Shown piece after piece: positions 1,618-11,237 of a DNA stretch of 11,237 bases. The stretch is from Gallionella sp. UBA6045 (GTDB taxonomy: Bacteria > Pseudomonadota > Gammaproteobacteria > Burkholderiales > Gallionellaceae). The notes beneath the pieces are model-generated. The model was not told the origin of the DNA. It saw nothing but the letters and a program-made list of their open reading frames with translations, and did no database searches. The stretch is taken from NCBI GenBank assembly GCA_002429165.1, contig DIYV01000077.1, positions 1 through 11,237 of the forward strand, given 5' to 3'. The stretch's first letter is position 1; the number at the start of each line of letters is the position of its first letter. The position numbers and the translations under genes were made by a program.

Positions 1618-2910
1618 ATGCCTGACACACTGGCCGACTGGCTGACCTACCTCGAAACCCTGCATCCAAAAACCATCGCGCTCGGCTTGGAGCGCGTGGC
1701 GCAAATCAAGCAGCGACTCAATCTTCAACCTGATTTTCCGATCATCGTGGTTGGCGGCACCAACGGCAAAGGCTCGGTGTGTGCGATGCTGGAATCCATC
1801 CTGCACGCCGCCGGATACCGCGTCGGTTGTTATACTTCGCCGCATCTGCTGCATTACAACGAGCGCGTGCGCATCGCCAAGCAGCAGGCGACCGATGCGG
1901 AGTTGTACGCTTCATTTGAAAAAATCGAGCAGGTACGCGGGGCCGCTTTTTCAGGAATGGAAGAAGTGCCACTTACGTACTTTGAATTCGGAACGTTGGC
2001 CGCGATGCAATGTTTCATCGAGCACAAGGTGGATGTAGCGATCCTCGAAGTCGGACTGGGCGGCAGGCTGGATGCGGTGAATGTATTCGATAACGATTGC
2101 GCGGTGATCGCCAGCGTGGATATCGACCACACCGATTATCTGGGCGACACGCGCGAGGCCATCGCGTATGAAAAGGCCGGGATCATGCGCAGCGGCAAGA
2201 TAGCGATCTGCGCGGATGAGGACGTGCCACTGGCGATACGCAGCCATGCGCAGCAGGTCGGTGCGGAGCTGTGGTGCATAGGCGGGAAATTCAGCTTTAC
2301 AGCACACCAAGGGCAGTGGGATTTTCGCAGCAAGTCGGGCACGAGAAGCGCGTTGCCCTATCCCGCTTTGCGCGGAGCGTACCAGTTGCAGAACGCCAGT
2401 GCCGCACTGGCGGCGCTGGATGTGCTCAAGGACCGTTTGCCGATAAGCATGGAAGCGGTGCGGCGCGGGTTGGGCGAAGTGCAACTCGCGGGTCGTTTCC
2501 AGTTTGTTCCCGGCAAGCCGTCGCTGATACTGGATGTGGCGCACAATCCCCATGCGGCTCGTGCACTGGCACAGAATCTGGCCGGTTTGCCGCCGTGCCC
2601 GCATACTTATGCGGTATTTTCCATGCTGGCGGACAAGGATATTGCGGGGGTGGCATCGGCACTCGATCCGCACATCGATACCTGGCTGGTGGCGGGTGTA
2701 GACACTCCGCGCAGTGCGACCGCGCAGCAGCTCGATCAAGTGCTGGAGCAGTGCCGGGTGCGCGGCGAGATTAAAATCTGCAAAAACATCCCCGATGCGC
2801 TGCGTTATGCCTATAACGCAGCAGGCGAAAATGATAGAATCATCGCCTTCGGATCGTTCTATACGGTGGCGGAAGTGATGGCCGCAAAAAGGTTGTCCAT
2901 TGCCCGGTAA
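1618..2910 (+). CDS. folC: Bifunctional dihydrofolate synthase / folylpolyglutamate synthase
   Basis: A 430-residue Mur-ligase-family enzyme, normal in length. It adds L-glutamate to dihydropteroate (giving dihydrofolate) and then further glutamates to reduced folates, using ATP in the cytoplasm. The ATP-binding P-loop is GGTNGKGS (residues 46-53). The central domain has VDIDHTDYLGDT (167-178) and the EKAGIMR motif (185-191). The start of the C-terminal domain shows LDVAHNPHAA (305-314), a family signature for metal and substrate binding. ATG 1618 gives the usual N-terminus (LADWLTYLETLHPKTIALGLERV). The ribosome site is weak (GAGA, 7 bases upstream). It opens the folC-dedD-cvpA-purF cluster; dedD follows after 33 bases. 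Confidence 0.97.
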   Translation: MPDTLADWLTYLETLHPKTIALGLERVAQIKQRLNLQPDFPIIVVGGTNGKGSVCAMLESILHAAGYRVGCYTSPHLLHYNERVRIAKQQATDAELYASFEKIEQVRGAAFSGMEEVPLTYFEFGTLAAMQCFIEHKVDVAILEVGLGGRLDAVNVFDNDCAVIASVDIDHTDYLGDTREAIAYEKAGIMRSGKIAICADEDVPLAIRSHAQQVGAELWCIGGKFSFTAHQGQWDFRSKSGTRSALPYPALRGAYQLQNASAALAALDVLKDRLPISMEAVRRGLGEVQLAGRFQFVPGKPSLILDVAHNPHAARALAQNLAGLPPCPHTYAVFSMLADKDIAGVASALDPHIDTWLVAGVDTPRSATAQQLDQVLEQCRVRGEIKICKNIPDALRYAYNAAGENDRIIAFGSFYTVAEVMAAKRLSIAR

Positions 2911-2943
2911 GAAATCAAAGTTCCCTTAAAGCGAGAACAAAGC

Positions 2944-3555
2944 ATGGCAAAACAGCAGACGGACGATGAACTGAATCTCAGGCGCAAAGCACGCCGCCGT
3001 TTGATCGGTGCGGTTGCGCTCACCTTGGCGGTGGTGGTGATATTGCCGATGGTGCTGGACAGTGAACCAAAATCTACCGGCAACGACATTGATTTGAGCA
3101 TACCCGACCCGGATAAAGTCGGCTCGTTTGTCCCACATGTAGCAGTTTCGGAAGTGAAGCCGCCATCAGCCAGTTCAGCCGTGGTGTCCGGTTCCACGCA
3201 GGCTGTCCGGGAGCCGGACGTAAAAAAACCGCTTGCCACAACCGCTCAGCAAACAGCGCCCAAGGCGCCCTTGCATAAGCCGGCAGATGCCCCCAAATCA
3301 AAAGAAACCAAGAGCGTGGATAAGCCGGCCGGTGCCGAAAGTTATGTCGCGCAGGTCGGTGCGTATTCAAATCCAGGTACCGCGAAGCAGGAATTCAAAA
3401 AGTTGAAGCAATTGGGTTTCAAGGTTTATACAGAAAAAGTTGGCGGCAACATACGGGTGCGCGTTGGCCCTTACACGGATCGCGACAAGGCTGAGAAAGT
3501 AGGCCATCTATTGGAAAAACATGGATACCATCCGGTGATCGTCAGCAGCAAATGA
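2944..3555 (+). CDS. dedD: SPOR-domain inner-membrane protein (DedD-like)
   Basis: 203 residues in three parts: a basic cytoplasmic N-terminus (residues 1-19, RRKARRR), one membrane helix (about 20-37), and a periplasmic Pro/Lys/Ala-rich linker (about 40-130) leading to a C-terminal SPOR domain (about 132-203). The SPOR domain shows YVAQVGAYSNPGTA, then the NIRVRVGPYTDRDKA segment and a final beta strand. SPOR domains bind septal peptidoglycan stripped of stem peptides, and DedD helps cell constriction in E. coli. The position between folC and cvpA-purF matches E. coli dedD. The last four bases overlap the cvpA start (ATGA), indicating translational coupling. The linker is low complexity, so assignment rests on topology, the SPOR domain and synteny. 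Confidence 0.9.
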   Translation: MAKQQTDDELNLRRKARRRLIGAVALTLAVVVILPMVLDSEPKSTGNDIDLSIPDPDKVGSFVPHVAVSEVKPPSASSAVVSGSTQAVREPDVKKPLATTAQQTAPKAPLHKPADAPKSKETKSVDKPAGAESYVAQVGAYSNPGTAKQEFKKLKQLGFKVYTEKVGGNIRVRVGPYTDRDKAEKVGHLLEKHGYHPVIVSSK

Positions 3556-4046
3556 ATGGACTGGATTTTGTCGTTATCGGGATATTGCTGTTTTCCATGT
3601 TGCTCGGTTTGTGGCGCGGCCTGCTTTACGAGATATTGTCTCTGTTGGGTTGGCCGATAGCGATTATCCTGAGCAAGTTATTCGCGGCCAGCGTGGCCCC
3701 GCTGATACCGATTGCACAAGAGGAGATGCGTGTCACGGCGGCCTATGCGCTGGTGTTCATTGCCGCATTGATTGTATGGGGTATAGTGGCCAGGTTGATC
3801 GCAAAAATGCTGAAGGCGATAGGATCTGACTGGGCAGATAGGGCGATGGGCGGATTGTTTGGAGTAATGCGCGGCGTGTTGGTGGTGCTCGTTCTGGTTT
3901 GGCTGGCAGGATTGACTCATGTTCCCGAACAACCTTTCTGGCGTGGCTCGCTGACTGGCAAGACACTGGAAGATGTTGCTCTACTGACCAAAGTGTGGCT
4001 GCCGGATAGCATCGCACAGCGTATCCATTATAGAACTCGCAGTTAA
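3552..4046 (+). CDS. cvpA: CvpA family membrane protein
   Basis: 164 residues with four predicted membrane helices (about 5-20, 27-44, 62-84 and 104-121) and a polar C-terminal tail. The N-terminus MNGLDFVVIGILLFSMLLG, the GLWRG turn and the DRAMGGLFGVMRG segment before the last helix are typical of CvpA. The family was named for a role in colicin V production and purine-linked phenotypes in E. coli; later work links it to envelope stress tolerance, and no biochemical activity is established. The start overlaps the dedD stop by 4 bases, and purF begins 18 bases downstream, the standard cvpA-purF pairing. Family call is firm; function is not. Confidence 0.93.
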   Translation: MNGLDFVVIGILLFSMLLGLWRGLLYEILSLLGWPIAIILSKLFAASVAPLIPIAQEEMRVTAAYALVFIAALIVWGIVARLIAKMLKAIGSDWADRAMGGLFGVMRGVLVVLVLVWLAGLTHVPEQPFWRGSLTGKTLEDVALLTKVWLPDSIAQRIHYRTRS

Positions 4047-4064: not shown

Positions 4065-5591
4065 ATGTGCGGCTTACTCGGATTGATCTCGCAATCACCG
4101 GCCAACCAGCTGTTGTATGATGGCTTGCAAGTCTTGCAGCATCGCGGTCAGGATGCAGCCGGTATCGCGACACTGGAAGGACATACCTTCCACCTGCACA
4201 AAGACAACGGGCTGGTGCGGGATGTGTTCCGCACCCGCCATATGCGTTCGTTGCTGGGAAATGCGGGGATTGCGCACGTGCGTTATCCGACTGCCGGATC
4301 TGCGGTGGATCACAACGAAGCGCAGCCGTTCTATGTGAATTCCCCGTTCGGTATCGTACTCGGACACAACGGCAACCTGACCAATGCGGATGAGCTAAAG
4401 CGGCAGTTGTTCGCGGAAGACTTGCGCCATGTCAACACCAACTCTGATTCCGAAGTGCTGTTGAATGTATTGGCACATGAGTTGCAGATCAAATCCAGGC
4501 AATACCGCCTCGATGTGCAAACAATTTTTGCGGCAGTATCCGGCGTGCATCAGCGTTGCCGCGGCGCGTATGCGGTAGTGGCGATGATTGCAGGCTACGG
4601 TCTGCTGGCATTCCGGGATATTTACGGTATCCGCCCGCTGGTGATCGGCATGAACGAAACCGCTCTTGGCACGGAATATCTGGTCGCATCAGAAAGCGTA
4701 GCCCTTGATACCCTGGGCTTTAAATTCATGCGTGATATCGCGCCGGGTGAAGCTGTGTTCATTGATTTTGACGGCAATCTGCACAGTCGGCAATGCAGCG
4801 ACAAAGCCAGCCTTAATCCGTGCATATTCGAGTACGTGTATCTGGCGCGCCCGGACTCGGTGATCGACGGCATCTCGGTGTATCAGGCACGCTTGTACAT
4901 GGGGGAATATCTGGCCGACAAGATCAAGCGCAGCTGGAGCGAGATCGACATCGATGTGGTGATCCCTATCCCGGATTCGAGTCGTCCCAGCGCTTTGCAA
5001 CTGGCGAATCGTCTCAACATCCCGTTCCGCGAAGGTTTTGTGAAGAACCGCTACATCGGGCGCACCTTCATCATGCCGGGACAGGCGATGCGCAAGAAAT
5101 CGGTGCGCCAGAAACTGAATGCCATCGGTGTTGAATTCAAGGGCAAGAACGTGTTGCTGGTGGATGACTCGATCGTGCGCGGCACCACCAGTCGCGAGAT
5201 CGTCCAGATGGCGCGCGATGCCGGCGCGCGAAAAGTGTTTTTCGCTTCTGCGGCTCCGCCGGTGCGTTTCCCGAATGTGTATGGTATCGATATGCCCAGT
5301 CCGCAGGAGCTGATTGCCACCGGACGCAGAGATGATGAGATCTGCCGCGAGATCGGCGCGGACCGCCTCATTTATCAGGACCTCGATGATCTCAAGGCGG
5401 CGGTACACAAGGCCAATCCGGAGATAAAAAACTTCGATGCGTCATGTTTTGACGGAATCTACATCACCGGCGATATCAGCGCCGATTATCTGAACCGGGT
5501 CGAAGCGTTGCGCGGCAGCGGGGAAGCCAACCCGCCGATTGACGATGACCAGTTGGAGTTGAACTTGGCAGTCAGCGCCACATCGATGTGA
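4065..5591 (+). CDS. purF: Amidophosphoribosyltransferase
   Basis: 508 residues, close to the E. coli enzyme. It performs the first committed step of purine synthesis, converting PRPP and glutamine to 5-phosphoribosylamine. The sequence starts MCGLLG, so Cys2 becomes the N-terminal nucleophile of the Ntn glutaminase domain after Met removal. Other glutaminase marks are [20 protein letters not shown] and GHNGNLTN. The phosphoribosyltransferase domain has the PRPP loop [13 protein letters not shown] (363-375; Asp367, Asp368), with [12 protein letters not shown] before it. There is no propeptide and no sign of the Fe-S ligand cysteines of the Bacillus type, so it is the E. coli-like class. GGGATAG upstream is a plausible ribosome site. 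It ends the folC cluster, and a hairpin-rich gap follows. Confidence 0.98.
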
Positions 5592-5960
5592 TTCCGCTTC
5601 CACTGCATCGGCGAAACTGTGTTGGCTTCCTCGCTCACTCCTGATGAAGCTACTGGTGCAACAACTAGCCATCCCACTAAGCAACCAGAATACGGTTGCC
5701 AAGTGGTTGGTTATAGCCATTCGACTAAACCCGCAAGCGGGCAAGTCGCTGGTTATCGCCGTGCTGACGCGCACTGTAGCTACCGCCGCCCTTACGGGCT
5801 TAACTTCGCAAGCGAAGTTAGCGTGCGCTGAAACTTGGAGTTTTCATCGTCGTTCGCTTTGCGTCGCGGTCGATGCGAAGCATCGGGTACCGCACGGCAT
5901 ACCCCTTGCGGGTACAGCCGCCTTGTTTCGCCTTCGCATTGAAACCGGGATTGGGTATAG
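5592..5960. other. Gene-free, hairpin-rich intergenic region after purF
   Basis: About 370 bases without a supported gene. It contains a run of small hairpins: GCAACC/GGTTGC (5681-5699), CCCGC/GCGGG (5730-5741), GCCC/GGGC (5788-5799), TAACTTCGC/GCGAAGTTA (5801-5820), CGATGC/GCATCG (5871-5885) and CGGC-TACCC/GGGTA-GCCG (5895-5920). AGCCATYCSACTAA occurs twice, near 5667 and 5715. An open frame crosses the area (5644-5964), but it simply reads through these palindromes, has no ribosome site and matches no family I know. Confidence 0.7.
5714..5756 (-). repeat. 43-base dispersed repeat, copy 2 (inverted)
   Basis: This is the reverse complement of 1469-1511 with one mismatch. Its internal palindrome CCCGC-AA-GCGGG lies at 5730-5741. 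Together the two copies flank the folC-dedD-cvpA-purF block in opposite orientation, about 4.2 kb apart. Confidence 0.85.
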
Positions 5961-5989
5961 TTGACAGCGCAGGTTACGGATGTTAATTT
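5961..5989 (+). promoter_or_regulatory. Sigma70 promoter for metZ, extended -10 type
   Basis: A perfect -35 box, TTGACA (5961-5966), is followed after 17 bases by TAATTT (5984-5989). A TG at 5981-5982 makes an extended -10 element (TGTTAATTT). Transcription should begin near 5995-5997, exactly where the riboswitch's first stem begins, which supports both calls. The -10 hexamer itself matches consensus only at positions 1, 2 and 6. Confidence 0.75.
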
Positions 5990-5994
5990 CCAAC

Positions 5995-6046
5995 TGCGCC
6001 GATTTGAGGATCAGCTTGCGGGCGCATAATAAATGCAGCTAAAGCG
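5995..6046 (+). promoter_or_regulatory. SAM-II (SAM-alpha) riboswitch aptamer controlling metZ
   Basis: The leader has the conserved SAM-II words in the right order: P1 stem TGCGCC (5995-6000) with GGCGCA (6021-6026), loop GATTTGA, then GCTTGC (6014-6019), TAATAAATG (6027-6035) and GCTAAA (6038-6043). AGCTTGC (6013-6019) can pair with GCAGCT (6035-6040) to make the pseudoknot. The pattern closely resembles the metX aptamer whose crystal structure is known. SAM-II senses S-adenosylmethionine and shuts off methionine synthesis genes. Here it precedes metZ, and a terminator follows directly, so control is probably by transcription termination. Found by eye, without a covariance search. Confidence 0.92.
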
Positions 6047-6050
6047 TGGG

Positions 6051-6085
6051 AAACCCGGTTTAGCGCCAAGCTATCCGGGTTTTTT
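6051..6085 (+). terminator. Riboswitch-controlled intrinsic terminator upstream of metZ
   Basis: AAACCCGG (6051-6058) pairs with CCGGGTTT (6075-6082), and inside it TAGC (6061-6064) pairs with GCTA (6070-6073) around the loop GCCAA. The run TTTTTT (6080-6085) follows. An alternative hairpin uses GCTAAA (6038-6043) with TTTAGC (6059-6064) and GGG (6048-6050) with CCC (6054-6056). It would break both the aptamer and this terminator, so it is a natural antiterminator. SAM binding should therefore favour termination. Confidence 0.88.
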
Positions 6086-6101
6086 AATTTAAGGGGCAAT
6101 C

Positions 6102-7277
6102 ATGTCTGAATCATCCTACCAGCCGGAAACGCTGGCGGTACATGCCGGCACCGTGCGCAGCCAGTTCGGCGAACACAGTGAAGCATTATTCCTGACTTCC
6201 AGCTTCGTGTTCGAGAATGCCGCGCAGGCCGCCGCGCGTTTCATCGGCGAACAGCCGGGCAACATCTATTCGCGATTCACCAATCCGACCGTTACCATGT
6301 TCGAGGAGCGGCTCGCGGCGATGGAAGGCGCCGAGCAATGCGTCGCAACCGCTTCGGGCATGTCGGCGATACTGGCTTGTGTGATGGGTGTGCTCAAGGC
6401 GGGAGACCATATCGTCGCTTCGCGCAGCCTGTTCGGCGCGACGGTCAATCTGTTCAACAATATCATCAGGAAATTCGGCGTCGAGACGACTTACGTTTCT
6501 GCCACCAAGGTCGCGGAATGGCAGGCTGCAGTGCGTCCCAACACCAGGCTGTTCTTTCTGGAAACACCGTCCAATCCGCTCACCGAGATTTCGGACATCG
6601 CGGCGATTGCCGCTGTTGCGAAACAATGCGGCGCGCTGCTGGCGGTGGACAACTGTTTCTGCACGCCTATCCTGCAACGCCCGCTGAAACTGGGTGCGGA
6701 CATCGTGATCCATTCCGCGACCAAATACATAGACGGGCAGGGACGCGCGCTGGGCGGCGCGGTGCTGGGCAGCAGGAAGAATATGGAAAGTGTGTACGGC
6801 TTTTTGCGCACCGCAGGGCCGACCATGAGCCCGTTCAATGCCTGGGTGTTCCTGAAGGGCTTGGAAACGCTCAAGCTGCGCATGGACGCGCACAGTGCCA
6901 ATGCGCTGGAGCTGGCGCGCTGGCTGGAAGCACAGCCGAATGTGGCACGGGTTTTCTACCCGGGTTTGCCATCGCATCCGCAGCACAAGCTGGCGATGCG
7001 CCAGCAGAAGACCGGCGGCGGCATCGTGTCGTTCGAGGTGAAGGGCGGCAAGGCAGCAGCATGGCGTGTGATCGACAATACCCAATTGCTTTCAATCACC
7101 GCGAATCTGGGCGACACCAAGACCACCATCACCCATCCGGCCAGCACCACTCATGCGCGCATCACACCCGAGGCGCGCGCGGCGGCAGGGATCACGGATG
7201 GCCTGATACGTATTGCAGCGGGACTGGAAGCGGTCGTGGATATTCAGAATGATCTTGCTCGCGGTTTGGGGAACTGA
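6102..7277 (+). CDS. metZ: O-succinylhomoserine sulfhydrylase
   Basis: 391 residues, a PLP enzyme of the Cys/Met metabolism (gamma) family. It makes homocysteine directly from O-succinylhomoserine and sulfide, bypassing cystathionine. The N-terminal half has SRFTNPTVTMFEERLAAMEG and ATASGMSAI. The PLP lysine is Lys208 in HSATKYIDGQGR, followed by the stretch YGFLRTAGPTMSPFNAWVF, which is characteristic of MetZ. The C-terminal half has LLSITANLGDTKTTITHPA, the usual substrate-carboxylate region. Overall agreement with MetZ is stronger than with MetB or MetY. ATG 6102 has a good ribosome site (AAGGGG, 5 bases upstream). A SAM-II riboswitch and terminator precede it, in line with a methionine role. 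It lies downstream of purF, as often seen in betaproteobacteria, but has its own promoter. Confidence 0.95.
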   Translation: MSESSYQPETLAVHAGTVRSQFGEHSEALFLTSSFVFENAAQAAARFIGEQPGNIYSRFTNPTVTMFEERLAAMEGAEQCVATASGMSAILACVMGVLKAGDHIVASRSLFGATVNLFNNIIRKFGVETTYVSATKVAEWQAAVRPNTRLFFLETPSNPLTEISDIAAIAAVAKQCGALLAVDNCFCTPILQRPLKLGADIVIHSATKYIDGQGRALGGAVLGSRKNMESVYGFLRTAGPTMSPFNAWVFLKGLETLKLRMDAHSANALELARWLEAQPNVARVFYPGLPSHPQHKLAMRQQKTGGGIVSFEVKGGKAAAWRVIDNTQLLSITANLGDTKTTITHPASTTHARITPEARAAAGITDGLIRIAAGLEAVVDIQNDLARGLGN

Positions 7278-7291
7278 AGTGAAAGCAATTC

Positions 7292-7363
7292 AGCCACAGA
7301 GTACACAGAGAGGGATGAGGGAGACAATTGGTTTTCTCTGTGTACTCTGTGATCTCTGTGGCT
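7292..7363. repeat. Long-stem inverted repeat between metZ and pncC
   Basis: CACAGAGTACACAGAGA (7295-7311) is the perfect 17-base complement of 7335-7351, with a 23-base loop. The right arm repeats TCTCTGTG (7353-7360) before GGCT, so the outer AGCC/GGCT bases pair only if that extra copy loops out. This CCACAGAG-type element resembles, from memory, a dispersed repeat in many bacterial genomes. It could also act as a terminator for metZ, although no T tract follows. It ends 14 bases before the pncC start. Confidence 0.75.
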
Positions 7364-7377
7364 AATGGGTTTTGTAA

Positions 7378-7869
7378 ATGAACAAACTTGCCGCGAAAGT
7401 TGGAGAAACCCTCAAATCGCATGGCCTGATGCTGGCCACGGCAGAATCCTGCACCGGTGGAGGTGTTGCACAGGCTATCACCGAAGTGGCGGGAAGCTCC
7501 GCCTGGTTCGAGCGCGGTTTCGTCACCTATTCCAATCTGTCCAAGCAGCAGATGCTGGGAGTGCGCGAGACCACGCTCAGGCAGCACGGCGCAGTGTCGG
7601 AAATGACGGTGCGCGAGATGGTGGAGGGCGCGTTAGCTAACAGCGCGGCACAAGTCGCATTAGCCGTCAGCGGCATCGCCGGACCGGGCGGCGGCACTGC
7701 GGGAAAGCCGGTGGGTACGGTGTGGTTCGCCTGGGGTATCAAGCAGGGCGAGACATACGCGCAACGCTATCGGTTGGATGGCAATCGTGCCGAAGTGCGC
7801 AGCCAGGCGGTGCGTATCGCCCTGCAGGGAGTGGCTGACCTGCTTGATAAATTGACCGAAACAGCCTAA
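7378..7869 (+). CDS. pncC: Nicotinamide-nucleotide amidohydrolase (CinA C-terminal domain type)
   Basis: 163 residues, the stand-alone PncC/YgaD form rather than full CinA. It deamidates nicotinamide mononucleotide to nicotinate mononucleotide, recycling NMN released by the NAD-dependent DNA ligase. Family motifs are AESCTGG (residues 22-28; Ser24 is the expected catalytic serine), the GSSAWFERGFVTYSN segment, LRQHGAVSE, SGIAGPGGG (98-106) and KPVGTVWFA. The ribosome site for ATG 7378 is weak (GGG about 8 bases upstream), and the leader is mostly the inverted repeat. The gene sits just before recA, as in E. coli, and its last codons carry the recA -35 box. The N-terminus could shift slightly; the family call is firm. 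Confidence 0.95.
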   Translation: MNKLAAKVGETLKSHGLMLATAESCTGGGVAQAITEVAGSSAWFERGFVTYSNLSKQQMLGVRETTLRQHGAVSEMTVREMVEGALANSAAQVALAVSGIAGPGGGTAGKPVGTVWFAWGIKQGETYAQRYRLDGNRAEVRSQAVRIALQGVADLLDKLTETA

Positions 7870-7879
7870 AAACTACAAG
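7852..7879 (+). promoter_or_regulatory. Probable recA promoter inside the 3' end of pncC
   Basis: TTGACC (7852-7857, five of six matches to the -35 consensus) lies 16 bases before TACAAG (7874-7879, four of six matches to the -10). Transcription would begin near 7886, inside the LexA site. This placement makes repression by promoter occlusion plausible. The boxes are moderate matches, and the start site is inferred. Confidence 0.6.
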
Positions 7880-7880
7880 A

Positions 7881-7892
7881 GAACGAACGTTC
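7881..7892. promoter_or_regulatory. Noncanonical LexA operator (SOS box) of recA
   Basis: The site reads GAACGAACGTTC: GAAC, four bases, GTTC. Adding one base each side keeps the symmetry (AGAAC-N4-GTTCT). It equals the consensus GAACGaaCGTTC reported for the LexA of Sideroxydans lithotrophicus and predicted for Gallionellales, Nitrosomonadales and Methylophilales, and resembles the Bacillus motif. It overlaps the predicted start of transcription. No good CTGT-N8-ACAG site is present upstream of recA. Confidence 0.88.
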
Positions 7893-7950
7893 TGTACAAA
7901 TCCAGAATGATGTGCCACAATCCGCCATCGTTTTTTGAAAGGGAATAAAA

Positions 7951-9052
<1,102 letters not shown>

Positions 9053-9069
<17 letters not shown>

Positions 9070-9532
9070 GGTCAGTCTGCGCCGACGGGCACTGCAATAT
9101 TTAGCCCGGCGCGAATACAGCCGTGCCGAGCTGCGCGGCAAGCTGTTGCCGCATGCGCAACCAGATGCGGATTTCGAACAGGTTCAACCTGTCGATCTGG
9201 ATGCGTTGCTGGATGATCTGACCGCGCGCGGCTGGCTATCCGATGTGCGTGCCGCCACCCAACTGGTACACGCCAAACGCAGCCGCTTCGGCTTGCAGCG
9301 TATCACCCACGAGTTGCATCAGAGAGGCATCTCGGAAGAACTGATCAGCGCCGCATTGCTGGAATTAAAAGATGGCGAACTGGAAGCTGCACGTAGCGTT
9401 TGGCAAAAGAAGTTCGGTACCGCACCTCGGGATGAGAAAGAAAAGGCCAAGCAAGTCCGCTTTTTGCAATCGCGCGGGTTTGCGATGGATGCGATCTTCA
9501 AGGTGCTGCGATGTGATGATTCGGAAGATTGA
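9053..9532 (+). CDS. recX: RecX, regulator of RecA
   Basis: RecX binds in the groove of RecA filaments and usually limits their growth. The protein is built of three-helix repeats. The sequence has [25 protein letters not shown], then [33 protein letters not shown] and [18 protein letters not shown], which is the standard family order. I chose GTG 9053 (159 residues), overlapping recA by 17 bases, because it gives a usual RecX length. An earlier in-frame GTG at 9002 would add 17 residues read from the RecA tail repeat in another frame. Neither start has a good ribosome site, so coupling to recA translation is likely. In many relatives alaS follows; here a cassette-like block does. Confidence 0.92.
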
Positions 9533-9583
9533 CGATGCCTGATGTATTGCACAATTTGGCGAATCCCATGTCTTCGAAATTAC

Positions 9584-9590
9584 GTTAGGC
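9584..9590 (+). other. Integron-type recombination core site (GTTAGGC)
   Basis: GTTAGGC fits the GTTRRRY core cut by integron integrases between G and TT. It sits 51 bases after the recX stop and 15 bases before the next start codon, as expected for the left edge of a gene cassette. Only a partial partner is visible upstream (GCCT at 9537-9540 against AGGC), so it is not a clear complete attC. It may be an attI, a worn attC or a secondary site. On its own a 7-base match is weak; the support comes from the full attC downstream. Confidence 0.5.
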
Positions 9591-10362
9591 TTCATAGGTT
9601 TTCATATGCTTGCATTGCTCAATATCGCTTTGGTTGGTCTTGCGCTCGACACAGGATTGATTGCTGGTCTTCTCATCTCGCGCCTTCTACAACGATCGGC
9701 GACGGCTTCTATTGTTGATCTTGGTCCTCTTATTGTTGCCGCTGGTGCTCTAACTGCACTTGTAGCCTTTCTCGTAAATTTGCGCCGTGCGAGGTCCGAA
9801 GATCTCCTTGAGGCCGCTATCGACCTGCTAGAAAAAGCCTACGAAAAATTGGCGCCTGCGGAAGGCTCAGATCAGCCGAGTAACAGTCGCCGCGCATGGC
9901 TCTCATCGGCAAGGTTGATCTTGACTGCCGAAAGGCTGGGTAACGGCATAACAGAGCCCAGCCACCGCTTGATATACCAAGAGACAAAGGAATACTGGCG
10001 AACTAGGCTGCATGAACTGATCTTCCCGTCAATTGAAAGCCTACCCAGTTCGTTTTACGCCGAGAGTCCAGTGCACATGATCTCTTGGTCTGGAAGAGCA
10101 CGCGATCCTCTATCTGAAAAGTCTCTGGCGTTTCTGTACCGTTTTATTCGCTGGCCCGAAAATGCCCTCGATCCACTCGGGGACGAGCTTACCTTTACCG
10201 ATGAGGAAATCGAAAAAATGCAGAGCTTCGGGCCACGCGGGCTCGGGAACCTCTTGGCTGAAGTTCGTCGTTTGCGGCGATCTGGGGCCTAGTCATGAAG
10301 CCCAACCCTGCAGTCAACACGGACGCTGCGCTAAAAGCCGCGCAGCGCGGGTTACTTCCACG
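9585..10362 (+). mobile_element. Putative integron gene cassette (membrane protein ORF plus attC)
   Basis: The segment runs from the TT of GTTAGGC to the G of the core GTTGAGC at the end of the downstream attC, 778 bases. It has the standard cassette plan: very short leader, one promoterless ORF filling nearly the whole unit, and an attC beginning 7 bases after the stop. Its codon use is less GC-rich than that of recA or purF. No integrase gene is in the window, so this may belong to a cluster of attC sites lacking an integrase, or to an integron continuing to the right. Confidence 0.65.
9606..10292 (+). CDS. Hypothetical two-helix membrane protein (cassette gene)
   Basis: 228 residues, not assigned to a named family. 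Two hydrophobic segments (about 5-27 and 40-58) are followed by an RRAR stretch, so by the positive-inside rule the large C-terminal part (about 60-228) should be cytoplasmic. That part starts with a charged helix (ARSEDLLEAAIDLLEKAYEKL), continues with WLSSARLILTAERLG, EPSHRLIYQETKEYWRTRLHEL and FLYRFIRWPEN, and ends with FTDEEIEKMQSFGPRGLGNLLAEVRRL. I recall similar uncharacterised proteins in accessory DNA, without a known function. No catalytic motif is evident. The ribosome site is weak (AGG before ATG 9606). It fills the putative cassette and probably depends on transcription from upstream. Confidence 0.8.
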   Translation: MLALLNIALVGLALDTGLIAGLLISRLLQRSATASIVDLGPLIVAAGALTALVAFLVNLRRARSEDLLEAAIDLLEKAYEKLAPAEGSDQPSNSRRAWLSSARLILTAERLGNGITEPSHRLIYQETKEYWRTRLHELIFPSIESLPSSFYAESPVHMISWSGRARDPLSEKSLAFLYRFIRWPENALDPLGDELTFTDEEIEKMQSFGPRGLGNLLAEVRRLRRSGA

Positions 10363-10368
10363 TTGAGC
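10300..10368 (+). other. Integron attC recombination site
   Basis: A 69-base imperfect palindrome with all the attC parts. R'' is GCCCAAC (10300-10306, RYYYAAC) and R' is GTTGAGC (10362-10368, GTTRRRY), complementary at six of seven positions. Inner boxes are TCAACACGG (10314-10322) and CGGGTTACT (10348-10356), placed like the L boxes of the aadA attC (TCAAGCCG / CGGCTTATT). The centre is an 8-bp stem, CGCTGCGC with GCGCAGCG, around an 8-base loop. The site lies between two ORFs and begins 7 bases after the first one's stop. Sequence is poorly conserved in attC sites, so structure is the argument. Confidence 0.82.
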
Positions 10369-10419
10369 GCCGCAAAATGCCCGAGCCCATTCATCCACAT
10401 TTACAGAGAGGATACTTCC

Positions 10420-11127
10420 GTGAAGAATCCACAAGTTCCGATGATTAAGAAGAGGCTACGCTTGTCGGCAATGCTCAAGTTAGTAAGGCTACTTCCCTCG
10501 TTGTACCTCTTCATAGCGACGCACGCGATGGCTGCGACACCTTGCGATTTCAAAGGCGTTTTTGTCGGTGACAAGACAACACCACCTACTCTGATAAAGG
10601 CGTTCGGGATAATGAACTACAAGATGAATCCTGAGCGCCCGCCGTTCGACAAGACTCTTAAGCTTGGGAAGAAATATAGTTTGATCGCAGCCGCCGAAAT
10701 TGAAGATTGGAACATGGGGTCGGTCTGCGACGCCAATTCCTGTCGGATTCCATTTGGAGTAGGTGTAGGCAACAGTAATCTTCCGGTGAGCGTGTTCATA
10801 TCATTTCCGGAAGGACGCATTACCGAAATTGATGTAACCTTCAATCAGCTGTACTGGGGAGAGATCAGGTCAATCCTAGACAATAAATATGGGGCGGCCT
10901 GGCGCGTTGAACGAGATCCATACTTTTTAATCACAGATAAAGAGACAAAACAATCATTCACGGTGGAGCGTACAACGCTGACTCATCGAATAAATGGCAC
11001 TAACCCAAAGACCGGCGATACCTGTCAGATTTGGGCGACGAACTACGACATGGTTTTCACTCATCACGATCCTTTAGGCACGTACCATTCAGTGTTCGCC
11101 ATCAAGCTGACGTCGAGAAACTTCTGA
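10420..11127 (+). CDS. Hypothetical secreted (periplasmic) protein
   Basis: 235 residues, not recognised. GTG 10420 is chosen because AGAGAGGA lies 7 bases upstream; the frame is open further left, but that part overlaps the preceding gene and the attC. A start at ATG 10441 would give a more usual signal peptide but has no ribosome site. The N-terminus has a basic stretch (KKRLRL), a hydrophobic core (LLPSLYLFIA) and a likely signal peptidase I site after AMA (residue 38). The mature part has four cysteines (residue 42 and in VCDANSC and DTC), enough for two disulfides. It ends in beta-rich segments such as SFTVERTTLTHRI. It follows the attC and looks like a second cassette gene. Function unknown. 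Confidence 0.78.
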   Translation: MKNPQVPMIKKRLRLSAMLKLVRLLPSLYLFIATHAMAATPCDFKGVFVGDKTTPPTLIKAFGIMNYKMNPERPPFDKTLKLGKKYSLIAAAEIEDWNMGSVCDANSCRIPFGVGVGNSNLPVSVFISFPEGRITEIDVTFNQLYWGEIRSILDNKYGAAWRVERDPYFLITDKETKQSFTVERTTLTHRINGTNPKTGDTCQIWATNYDMVFTHHDPLGTYHSVFAIKLTSRNF

Positions 11128-11157
11128 TCTTTCGAGCCAACGAATTGGCAGCTCGCA

Positions 11158-11235
11158 TAGGGTGCAATAAACGTAGTGCATTGCACCGGATGTTTTATGG
11201 TAAATGGTGCAATGCCCGTTGGTTATTGCACCCTA
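11158..11235. repeat. Nested palindromic repeat
   Basis: The outer arms TAGGGTGCAATAA (11158-11170) and TTATTGCACCCTA (11223-11235) are perfect 13-base inverted repeats. The inner arms GCATTGCACC (11178-11187) and GGTGCAATGC (11206-11215) are perfect over 10 bases. GGTGCAAT and its complement each occur twice, so the strand can fold as one long hairpin or as two tandem 8-bp hairpins (11161-11187 and 11206-11232). From memory, TAGGGTGCAATAA-type elements are dispersed in betaproteobacterial genomes. Continuation to the right cannot be judged. Confidence 0.8.
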
Positions 11236-11237
11236 CA

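What the first reader, a model, noticed from the sequence alone, without database searches (positions are those of the whole stretch)
9584..11237. Probable integron gene cassettes in the recX downstream region
A structurally complete attC (10300-10368) separates two unrelated ORFs of unknown function, and a GTTRRRY core lies just before the first ORF. Cassette features fit: short leaders, one ORF per unit, attC 7 bases after the stop, and composition different from the core genes. No integrase is visible, and the place commonly held by alaS is occupied. This may be an integrase-less cassette cluster or an edge of a chromosomal integron.
Basis: partly seen in the sequence, partly recalled or inferred. 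Interest (0 to 1): 0.75.

Follow-up and report, generated by a model that had tools for sequence, protein, structure and literature searches.

The report
Integron cassettes beside recX, without integrase
Behind the DNA-repair gene recX, this bacterium holds captured integron genes at what looks like a leftover integron docking site without its own integrase; related species hold other genes at the same spot, which suggests a landing pad worth testing.

Summary
The attC at 10300-10368 scores 50.2 bits (E 2.6e-9 over the genome) with a model built from other Gallionella attC sites. The genome has an integron integrase with attI and an attC array on another contig, and alaS lies just beyond the window. 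The GTTAGGC core at 9584-9590 ends a roughly 45-base site that resembles integron attI sites and not attC sites. Such a site follows recX directly in 8 of 68 Gallionella genomes, each with a different gene behind it, and lies at recX in one genome each of two other genera. Longer relatives of the site at three other loci carry what looks like the start of intI but no intI; two of the three are followed by attC sites. Best reading: a relic integron platform that lost intI and kept a truncated attI with cassettes. recA-recX carries a LexA-like box, so read-through could make the cassettes SOS-inducible; that is inference. The closest relatives lack the insert. Whether the site still recombines is untested.

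The parts
7881..7892 (.). LexA-like palindrome GAACGAACGTTC upstream of recA
   Evidence: Form GAACGWWCGTTC in 26 of 29 recA upstream regions printed (own included); 5 exact copies in the genome against 1 for the reversed control pattern; one copy 26 bp before a LexA-like gene, (named by eye)
7951..9069 (+). recA
   Evidence: ORF, named by eye; used as tblastn query that finds recA beside recX in L248 and L249
9002..9532 (+). recX (longest ORF; true start probably later)
   Evidence: Pfam RecX_HTH1, HTH2 and HTH3 over cut-off
9545..9590 (+). attI-like site, truncated; core GTTAGGC 9584-9590, inferred crossover between G9584 and T9585
   Evidence: Shared at recX in 8 of 68 Gallionella genomes; model R2 match 9545-9589 (this site was in the model); resembles attI and not attC
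9585..10362 (+). cassette 1, limits inferred from the two cores
   Evidence: From TTAGGC of the site to the G of R' in attC
9606..10292 (+). ORF1, 228 aa, unknown function, N-terminal hydrophobic segments
   Evidence: 85 homologues; no Pfam family; mostly helical model, mean pLDDT 77; no PDB fold at E <= 0.001
10300..10368 (+). attC of cassette 1
   Evidence: 50.2 bits, E 2.6e-9 genome-wide, model built without it; 87-89% like attC at OXA-2-family cassettes
10363..11148 (+). second unit, probably cassette 2 without its attC
   Evidence: Lies between attC of cassette 1 and the host right flank; no attC called behind ORF2
10420..11127 (+). ORF2, 235 aa, unknown function, N-terminal signal-like segment
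   Evidence: 41 proteins found, the window's own included; no Pfam family; model mean pLDDT 87; no PDB fold at E <= 0.001
11149..11237 (+). host right flank leading to alaS, with a strong palindrome
   Evidence: Aligns directly to the sequence behind recX in G036; folding z -6.5 for 11128-11237

Best explanation
The segment 9533-11148 is a relic integron platform between recX and alaS. It keeps the last 45-60 bases of an attI site (intI is gone), one cassette with its attC, and a second cassette whose attC is lost. Cassettes arrived by IntI-catalysed attI x attC recombination between G9584 and T9585, carried out by an intI that once stood beside the site or, in trans, by an integron elsewhere in the cell; this genome still has one on contig C187. 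Different species hold different cassettes at the site, so cassettes were captured there more than once. As the cassettes lie 73 bases behind recX with no terminator-like site between, they are probably transcribed from the LexA-controlled recA promoter. Shown by computation: the attC, the shared site at recX, its attI likeness, different ORFs behind it, an integrase elsewhere in the genome. Inferred: loss of a local intI, action in trans, SOS-driven expression.
For: attC called by a model that did not contain it. Site directly behind recX in 8 of 68 Gallionella genomes with 8 different ORFs behind it, and at recX in G490 and G473 of two other genera. Against 4141 control anchors the sites look like type-B attI (0 controls as high for 4 sites; 4, 5, 11 and 79 for the others) and unlike attC (2867-4038 as high). 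Longer relatives of the site without intI in the 8-14 kb fetched match a profile of intI start plus attI with E 8e-9, 6e-8 and 6e-6, and two of those three are followed by attC (3 sites of 69-73 bits in G503, 1 of 35 bits in G014). The unit start TTGAACTAAACCGC stands directly behind the core G at four intI-adjacent attI sites and at the recX site of G473.
Against: The intI-start-plus-attI profile does not find the recX sites themselves (none listed at E <= 5), and the recX-site profile gives only E 0.7-8 at intI-adjacent attI; the link rests on the anchored test, on the intermediate sites and on position. Type B was chosen after the likeness was seen. Of the site-bearing genomes, 6 of 8 have an IntI over cut-off against 32 of 68 others (Fisher p 0.26), and none of the five whose attI could be read has a type-B attI beside its intI. 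No genome was found with intI beside recX. No attC is called behind the last ORF at any of the eight loci, which speaks against free exchange today. The closest relatives G036 and G001 lack the site, so loss or separate gain must be assumed.
Confidence: 0.7

Rival explanations
1. attG insertion: the sequence behind recX is ordinary host DNA that IntI uses as a non-classical genomic site, and its likeness to attI is convergence on what IntI binds.
For: attG sites are reported as genomic insertion sites (passages of PMC12901181 and PMC12444791). The first 20 or so bases behind recX are also found in G044, where a different gene follows (neighbours).
Against: The site was not seen without a foreign ORF behind it in the 8 Gallionella loci, and 60 of 68 recX loci lack it; its likeness to attI extends over about 40 bases; related sites carry intI-start relics and attC arrays at other loci. 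PMC12444791 describes attG insertions as scattered over many loci, here one place recurs.
Confidence: 0.14
2. A small mobile unit carrying an attI fragment with a cassette was inserted behind recX several times, so the site travels and is not a relic of a local platform.
For: The site also occurs away from recX (G014 C9, G471, G503), and there are two types of left junction at recX.
Against: The recX copies of one junction type share the same bases from the recX stop into the site in three genera, which fits inheritance or repair at one place better than repeated insertion; no transposase accompanies them in the stretches read.
Confidence: 0.1
3. The insert is an assembly artefact or a fragment of the C187 array joined to the wrong contig.
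For: The assembly has 204 contigs and 83% completeness and 228 N before alaS.
Against: The same layout occurs in seven other Gallionella genomes, among them contigs of 302 kb (G014) and 149 kb (G058); the window's right flank beside ORF2, before the N run, aligns to the recX-alaS spacer of G036.
Confidence: 0.03
4. Ordinary resident genes with a chance attC-like repeat.
For: Single-strand folding of the repeat is only modestly better than shuffles.
Against: E 2.6e-9 genome-wide with an independent attC model; likeness to attC of known cassettes; genes not shared with relatives.
Confidence: 0.02

Closest known systems
[quoted passage not shown]
   Same: Cassettes and attC away from any intI, in a genome that has an integron elsewhere
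   Different: Only one attC at this locus, below the usual threshold of two; an attI-like site is kept at the left end; the place recurs across species with different cassettes
Sedentary chromosomal integron
   Same: attI-like site followed by cassettes; the own genome has one on C187
   Different: No intI at recX; attI truncated to about 45-60 bases
Insertion at attG or secondary sites (Loot et al. 2024, known to me here only as cited by PMC12901181 and PMC12444791; PMC10127599 passages)
   Same: A few cassettes inserted in a chromosome outside an integron, next to a GTT core
   Different: The target resembles attI over about 40 bases and is the same place in several species

Membership tests
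Integron gene cassette with attC | attC with R''/R' boxes and a foldable imperfect palindrome | tested here: met
   Model R1, 50.2 bits, built without this site
Integron gene cassette with attC | One short promoterless ORF per unit, ending near attC | tested here: met
   ORF1 ends 7 bases before attC; two promoter-like matches on the + strand in 7700-11237 (one inside ORF1, one before ORF2) are at chance level
Integron gene cassette with attC | Excised and inserted by IntI | not testable with these tools
   Needs an assay
attI site | Sequence likeness to attI beside intI | tested here: met
   Anchored test with 4141 controls; weak by profile alone
attI site | Adjacent intI | tested here: not met
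   No IntI in the window's contig among the genome's TIGR02249 matches; none near the five non-training sites
CALIN | At least two attC without intI | tested here: not met
   One attC called at this locus
Complete integron | intI, attI and cassettes together | tested here: not met
   IntI is on C187, not on C197
attG insertion | Target is neither attI nor attC | tested here: inconclusive
   attI likeness argues against, but no assay was possible and the primary attG paper was not read

The most novel reading that the evidence does not exclude
Some Gallionellaceae keep an integrase-free attI in the recA-recX SOS operon as a standing landing pad. An IntI made elsewhere in the cell loads cassettes there in trans, and the LexA-controlled recA promoter expresses them, so capture and expression of new genes are both tied to DNA damage without a local integrase.
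Probability: 0.25. Interest if true: 0.75.

Novelty: new variant of a known kind. Interest (0 to 1): 0.52.

Why it matters
How integrase-less cassette loci arise and whether they stay in use is open. A shared attI-like site without intI, with a different gene behind it in each species, gives a concrete place to test whether attI works in trans, how integron platforms decay, and whether cassettes can be put under a host SOS operon. Searches that start from intI or require two attC sites would not report such loci.

Tried and rejected
Rfam scan: nothing at gathering thresholds. Strict attC regex on the recX loci of the other site-bearing genomes: none, although G058 has an attC-like repeat by eye that the model gives only 13.7 bits, E 0.98. 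LexA box of the form CTGT-N8-ACAG: no more than chance; replaced by GAACGWWCGTTC. Idea that the site is half of an attC: rejected, likeness below average. Idea that a type-B integron still sits beside recX somewhere: recA, recX, cinA, metZ and alaS were sought in the stretches around seven type-B intI genes and not found; the only hits were in the G020 recX region fetched separately. Idea that the site occurs only at recX: contradicted and dropped. In one search, 68 of 158 genomes have some match at E <= 0.1, but below the twelve best the matches are partial and at chance-like E-values (0.005-0.1), and I treated them as chance without looking at each; the recX site of G013 was not among the matches listed there and rests. 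In one search all eight sites were in the profile, so their scores there are not independent. Function of ORF1 and ORF2: no Pfam family, no PDB fold at E <= 0.001, 2 weak plasmid records for ORF1 and none for ORF2. The right-flank motif TAGGGTGCAATAARCG has 1 exact copy in this genome, so I do not call it a genome-wide repeat. Not done: NCBIfam and PADLOC scans of the cassette ORFs, searches for ORF1 and ORF2 in all genomes of the genus.

Full report
WHAT IS THERE. The window is the first 11,237 bases of contig C197 (19,642 bp) of a 2.81 Mb genome in 204 contigs, 83% complete. Genes in order look like accD, folC, a SPOR-type gene, cvpA, purF, metZ, cinA, recA and recX (by eye; recX by Pfam). 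Then follow the two ORFs, 228 N, and alaS. The attC is confirmed by a model that did not contain it and by likeness to attC at OXA-2-family cassettes on plasmids.

THE GENOME'S OWN INTEGRON. C187 holds an IntI with 488.8 bits to TIGR02249 (the 14 control genomes match weakly, none over the cut-off), a divergent attI-like region, and an array. A regex finds four good attC there (one further weak match at 15001); model R1 calls three of these and another at 13723-13795. In all, R1 has eight matches in the genome: C187 (4), C89 (1), C190 (2, one partial at a contig end) and the window's own. Three of the eight, on C187, were in the model. An IS91-like transposase and tyrosine recombinase ORFs interrupt the C187 array (by eye).

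THE SITE BEHIND recX. Of 76 same-genus genomes, 68 have a recX match. I read the sequence behind recX in the own genome and 67 relatives. A 23-base motif ending in GTTAGGC, at most 5 mismatches, begins 37-40 bases behind the start of the recX stop codon in 6 of 68 (G000, G014, G027, G058, G045, G021). Two degenerate copies (G041, G013) were seen by eye and score with a profile that included them. Behind the 8 sites stand different ORFs; all-against-all blastn of the segments gives nothing better than E 0.004, and the window's best match, to G058, lies where both have attC-like repeats. G058 has that repeat between two ORFs, like the window (only 13.7 bits, E 0.98). The closest relatives by recX, G036 and G001, have no site; against G036, window 9533-11148 is extra. 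On a recX protein tree with many weak branches the label needs 6 changes (shuffled mean 7.7; 23 of 500 shuffles as low).

IS IT AN attI? Beside intI genes of the genus I saw at least two attI types. Anchored on the GTT core, I compared positions -4 to -42 with 4141 control anchors from recX loci without the site (two alignment gaps in five sites, and single gaps in two, were skipped). Against type B, 0 controls score as high for G058, G045, G041 and G013, 4 for G014, 5 for the window, 11 for G021, 79 for G027. Against type A the counts are 8-54, and 181 for G027. Against attC the sites score below average (2867-4038 of 4141 as high). A column-shuffle version gave 45% identity against 26% expected, 0 of 2000 as high. 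Caveats: type B was chosen after the likeness was seen, the eight sites are related to each other, and profile searches alone do not make the link: the recX-site profile gives E 0.7-8 at intI-adjacent attI, and the intI-start-plus-attI profile lists no recX site at E <= 5.

INTERMEDIATES. A sequence-only model of seven of the sites searched 158 Gallionellaceae genomes. Besides the seven it found, with E from 7e-10 to 9e-6, G490 and G473 (other genera), a second site in G014 on C9, and one in G471; G503 follows with E 1.2e-3. G490 and G473 are again at recX; in G473 the main recX match ends 0.85 kb before the site, and a recX-like tail stands directly before it. The G471 site follows a gene that looks like hda (by eye). 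tblastn with the own IntI finds no intI in the 8-14 kb fetched around these five. The three sites away from recX are longer: a profile of intI start plus type-B attI finds them with E 8e-9, 6e-8 and 6e-6 in 182 kb, and the opposite strand reads short peptides like the IntI N terminus (by eye). Behind the G503 site stand three attC of 69-73 bits, behind the G014 C9 site one of 35 bits; the G471 site is 236 bases from its contig end. So attI-like sites without intI but with arrays exist in this family, and the recX sites look like their shorter relatives.

A further pointer: the start TTGAACTAAACCGC occurs at five distinct places in the loci fetched by then, each directly behind the core G: four at attI beside intI (G041, G067, G049, G073) and one at the recX site of G473. 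By blastn about 41 bases are shared; behind them the sequences differ or were not comparable.

HOW IT MOST LIKELY WORKS. IntI pairs a folded attC with attI and crosses over behind the G of the core (established knowledge). Cassette 1 would then run from T9585 to G10362. The second unit has no attC. No attC is called behind the last ORF at any of the eight loci, and in several the host-like flank GCGTAGGG begins within about 30 bases of the stop codon; G041 has an attC-like stretch by eye that the model did not report. Loss of the last attC would lock cassettes in; I cannot explain why it recurs, and it weakens the idea of free exchange today. Two left-junction types fit different deletions of an ancestral platform but also fit repeated arrival. 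IntI over cut-off is present in 6 of 8 site-bearing and 32 of 68 other genomes (p 0.26), so the site does not track intI; where I could read it, the attI beside those intI genes is not type B.

EXPRESSION. GAACGWWCGTTC stands upstream of recA in 26 of 29 regions printed, own included (30 loci examined). It has 5 exact copies in this genome, against 1 for the reversed pattern, one 26 bp before a LexA-like gene and one 61 bp before a UvrD-like gene (by eye). The terminator scan lists none on the + strand between recX and ORF1, but that scan finds no more than chance overall. SOS-driven read-through is plausible and untested.

THE GENES. ORF1: 85 proteins found, many on contigs of 1-3 kb; 4 of 399 genomes of the order at E <= 0.001, only the own one strong. 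ORF2: 41 proteins, the window's own included, one named from Paraburkholderia hospita; 1 of 399 genomes, its own. No Pfam family, no PDB fold at E <= 0.001. ORF1 is probably a membrane protein and ORF2 exported, from their hydrophobic N-terminal segments (inference).

LITERATURE. Searches of the held library gave 0 papers for integron + 'orphan attI', 0 for integron + attI + recX, and 6 for integron + Gallionella, seen as a listing. Statements on attG, CALIN and secondary sites come from passages of PMC12901181, PMC12444791 and PMC10127599. Loot et al. 2024 was seen only as a reference in the first two. The likeness of the site's end to attI1 of class 1 integrons is from memory and untested.

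Noticed in passing
L207 (own genome C190) 1-2232: A transposase ORF that looks like the IS110 family (319-1359) stands between what look like the two parts of one attC, followed by a cassette-like ORF and an attC at 2169-2232 (family by eye).
   Followed up: partly
L054 (own genome C187) 11634-13644: An IS91-like transposase and tyrosine recombinase ORFs interrupt the cassette array beside intI (by eye).
   Followed up: no
L161, L163, L177, L179, L249: The same unit start TTGAACTAAACCGC directly behind the core at attI sites of four integrons and at the recX site of G473; what the unit is was not worked out.
   Followed up: partly
L252 (G503) 4372-6692: attI-like site with an intI-start relic and three attC, no intI on the 8.4 kb contig: an integrase-less integron.
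   Followed up: partly
L250 (G014 C9) 6149-7382, minus strand: A second attI-like site in the same genome as a recX site, with one attC behind it and no intI in 14 kb.
   Followed up: partly
window 7881-7892 and loci L057-L086: GAACGWWCGTTC upstream of recA and of a LexA-like gene: the likely LexA box of this genus, unlike CTGT-N8-ACAG.
   Followed up: partly
window 11128-11237: Strong palindrome before alaS (folding z -6.5), also directly behind recX in G036.
   Followed up: partly
L098 (G041), L100 (G058), L090 (G027): Other ORFs behind the recX site look like an AAA-type ATPase (G041), a PIN-domain protein (G058) and an HNH-like protein (G027), named by eye only; possibly defence genes.
   Followed up: no
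window 10162-11127: The ORF2 frame is open back through the attC into ORF1, giving a 321-aa ORF.
   Followed up: no
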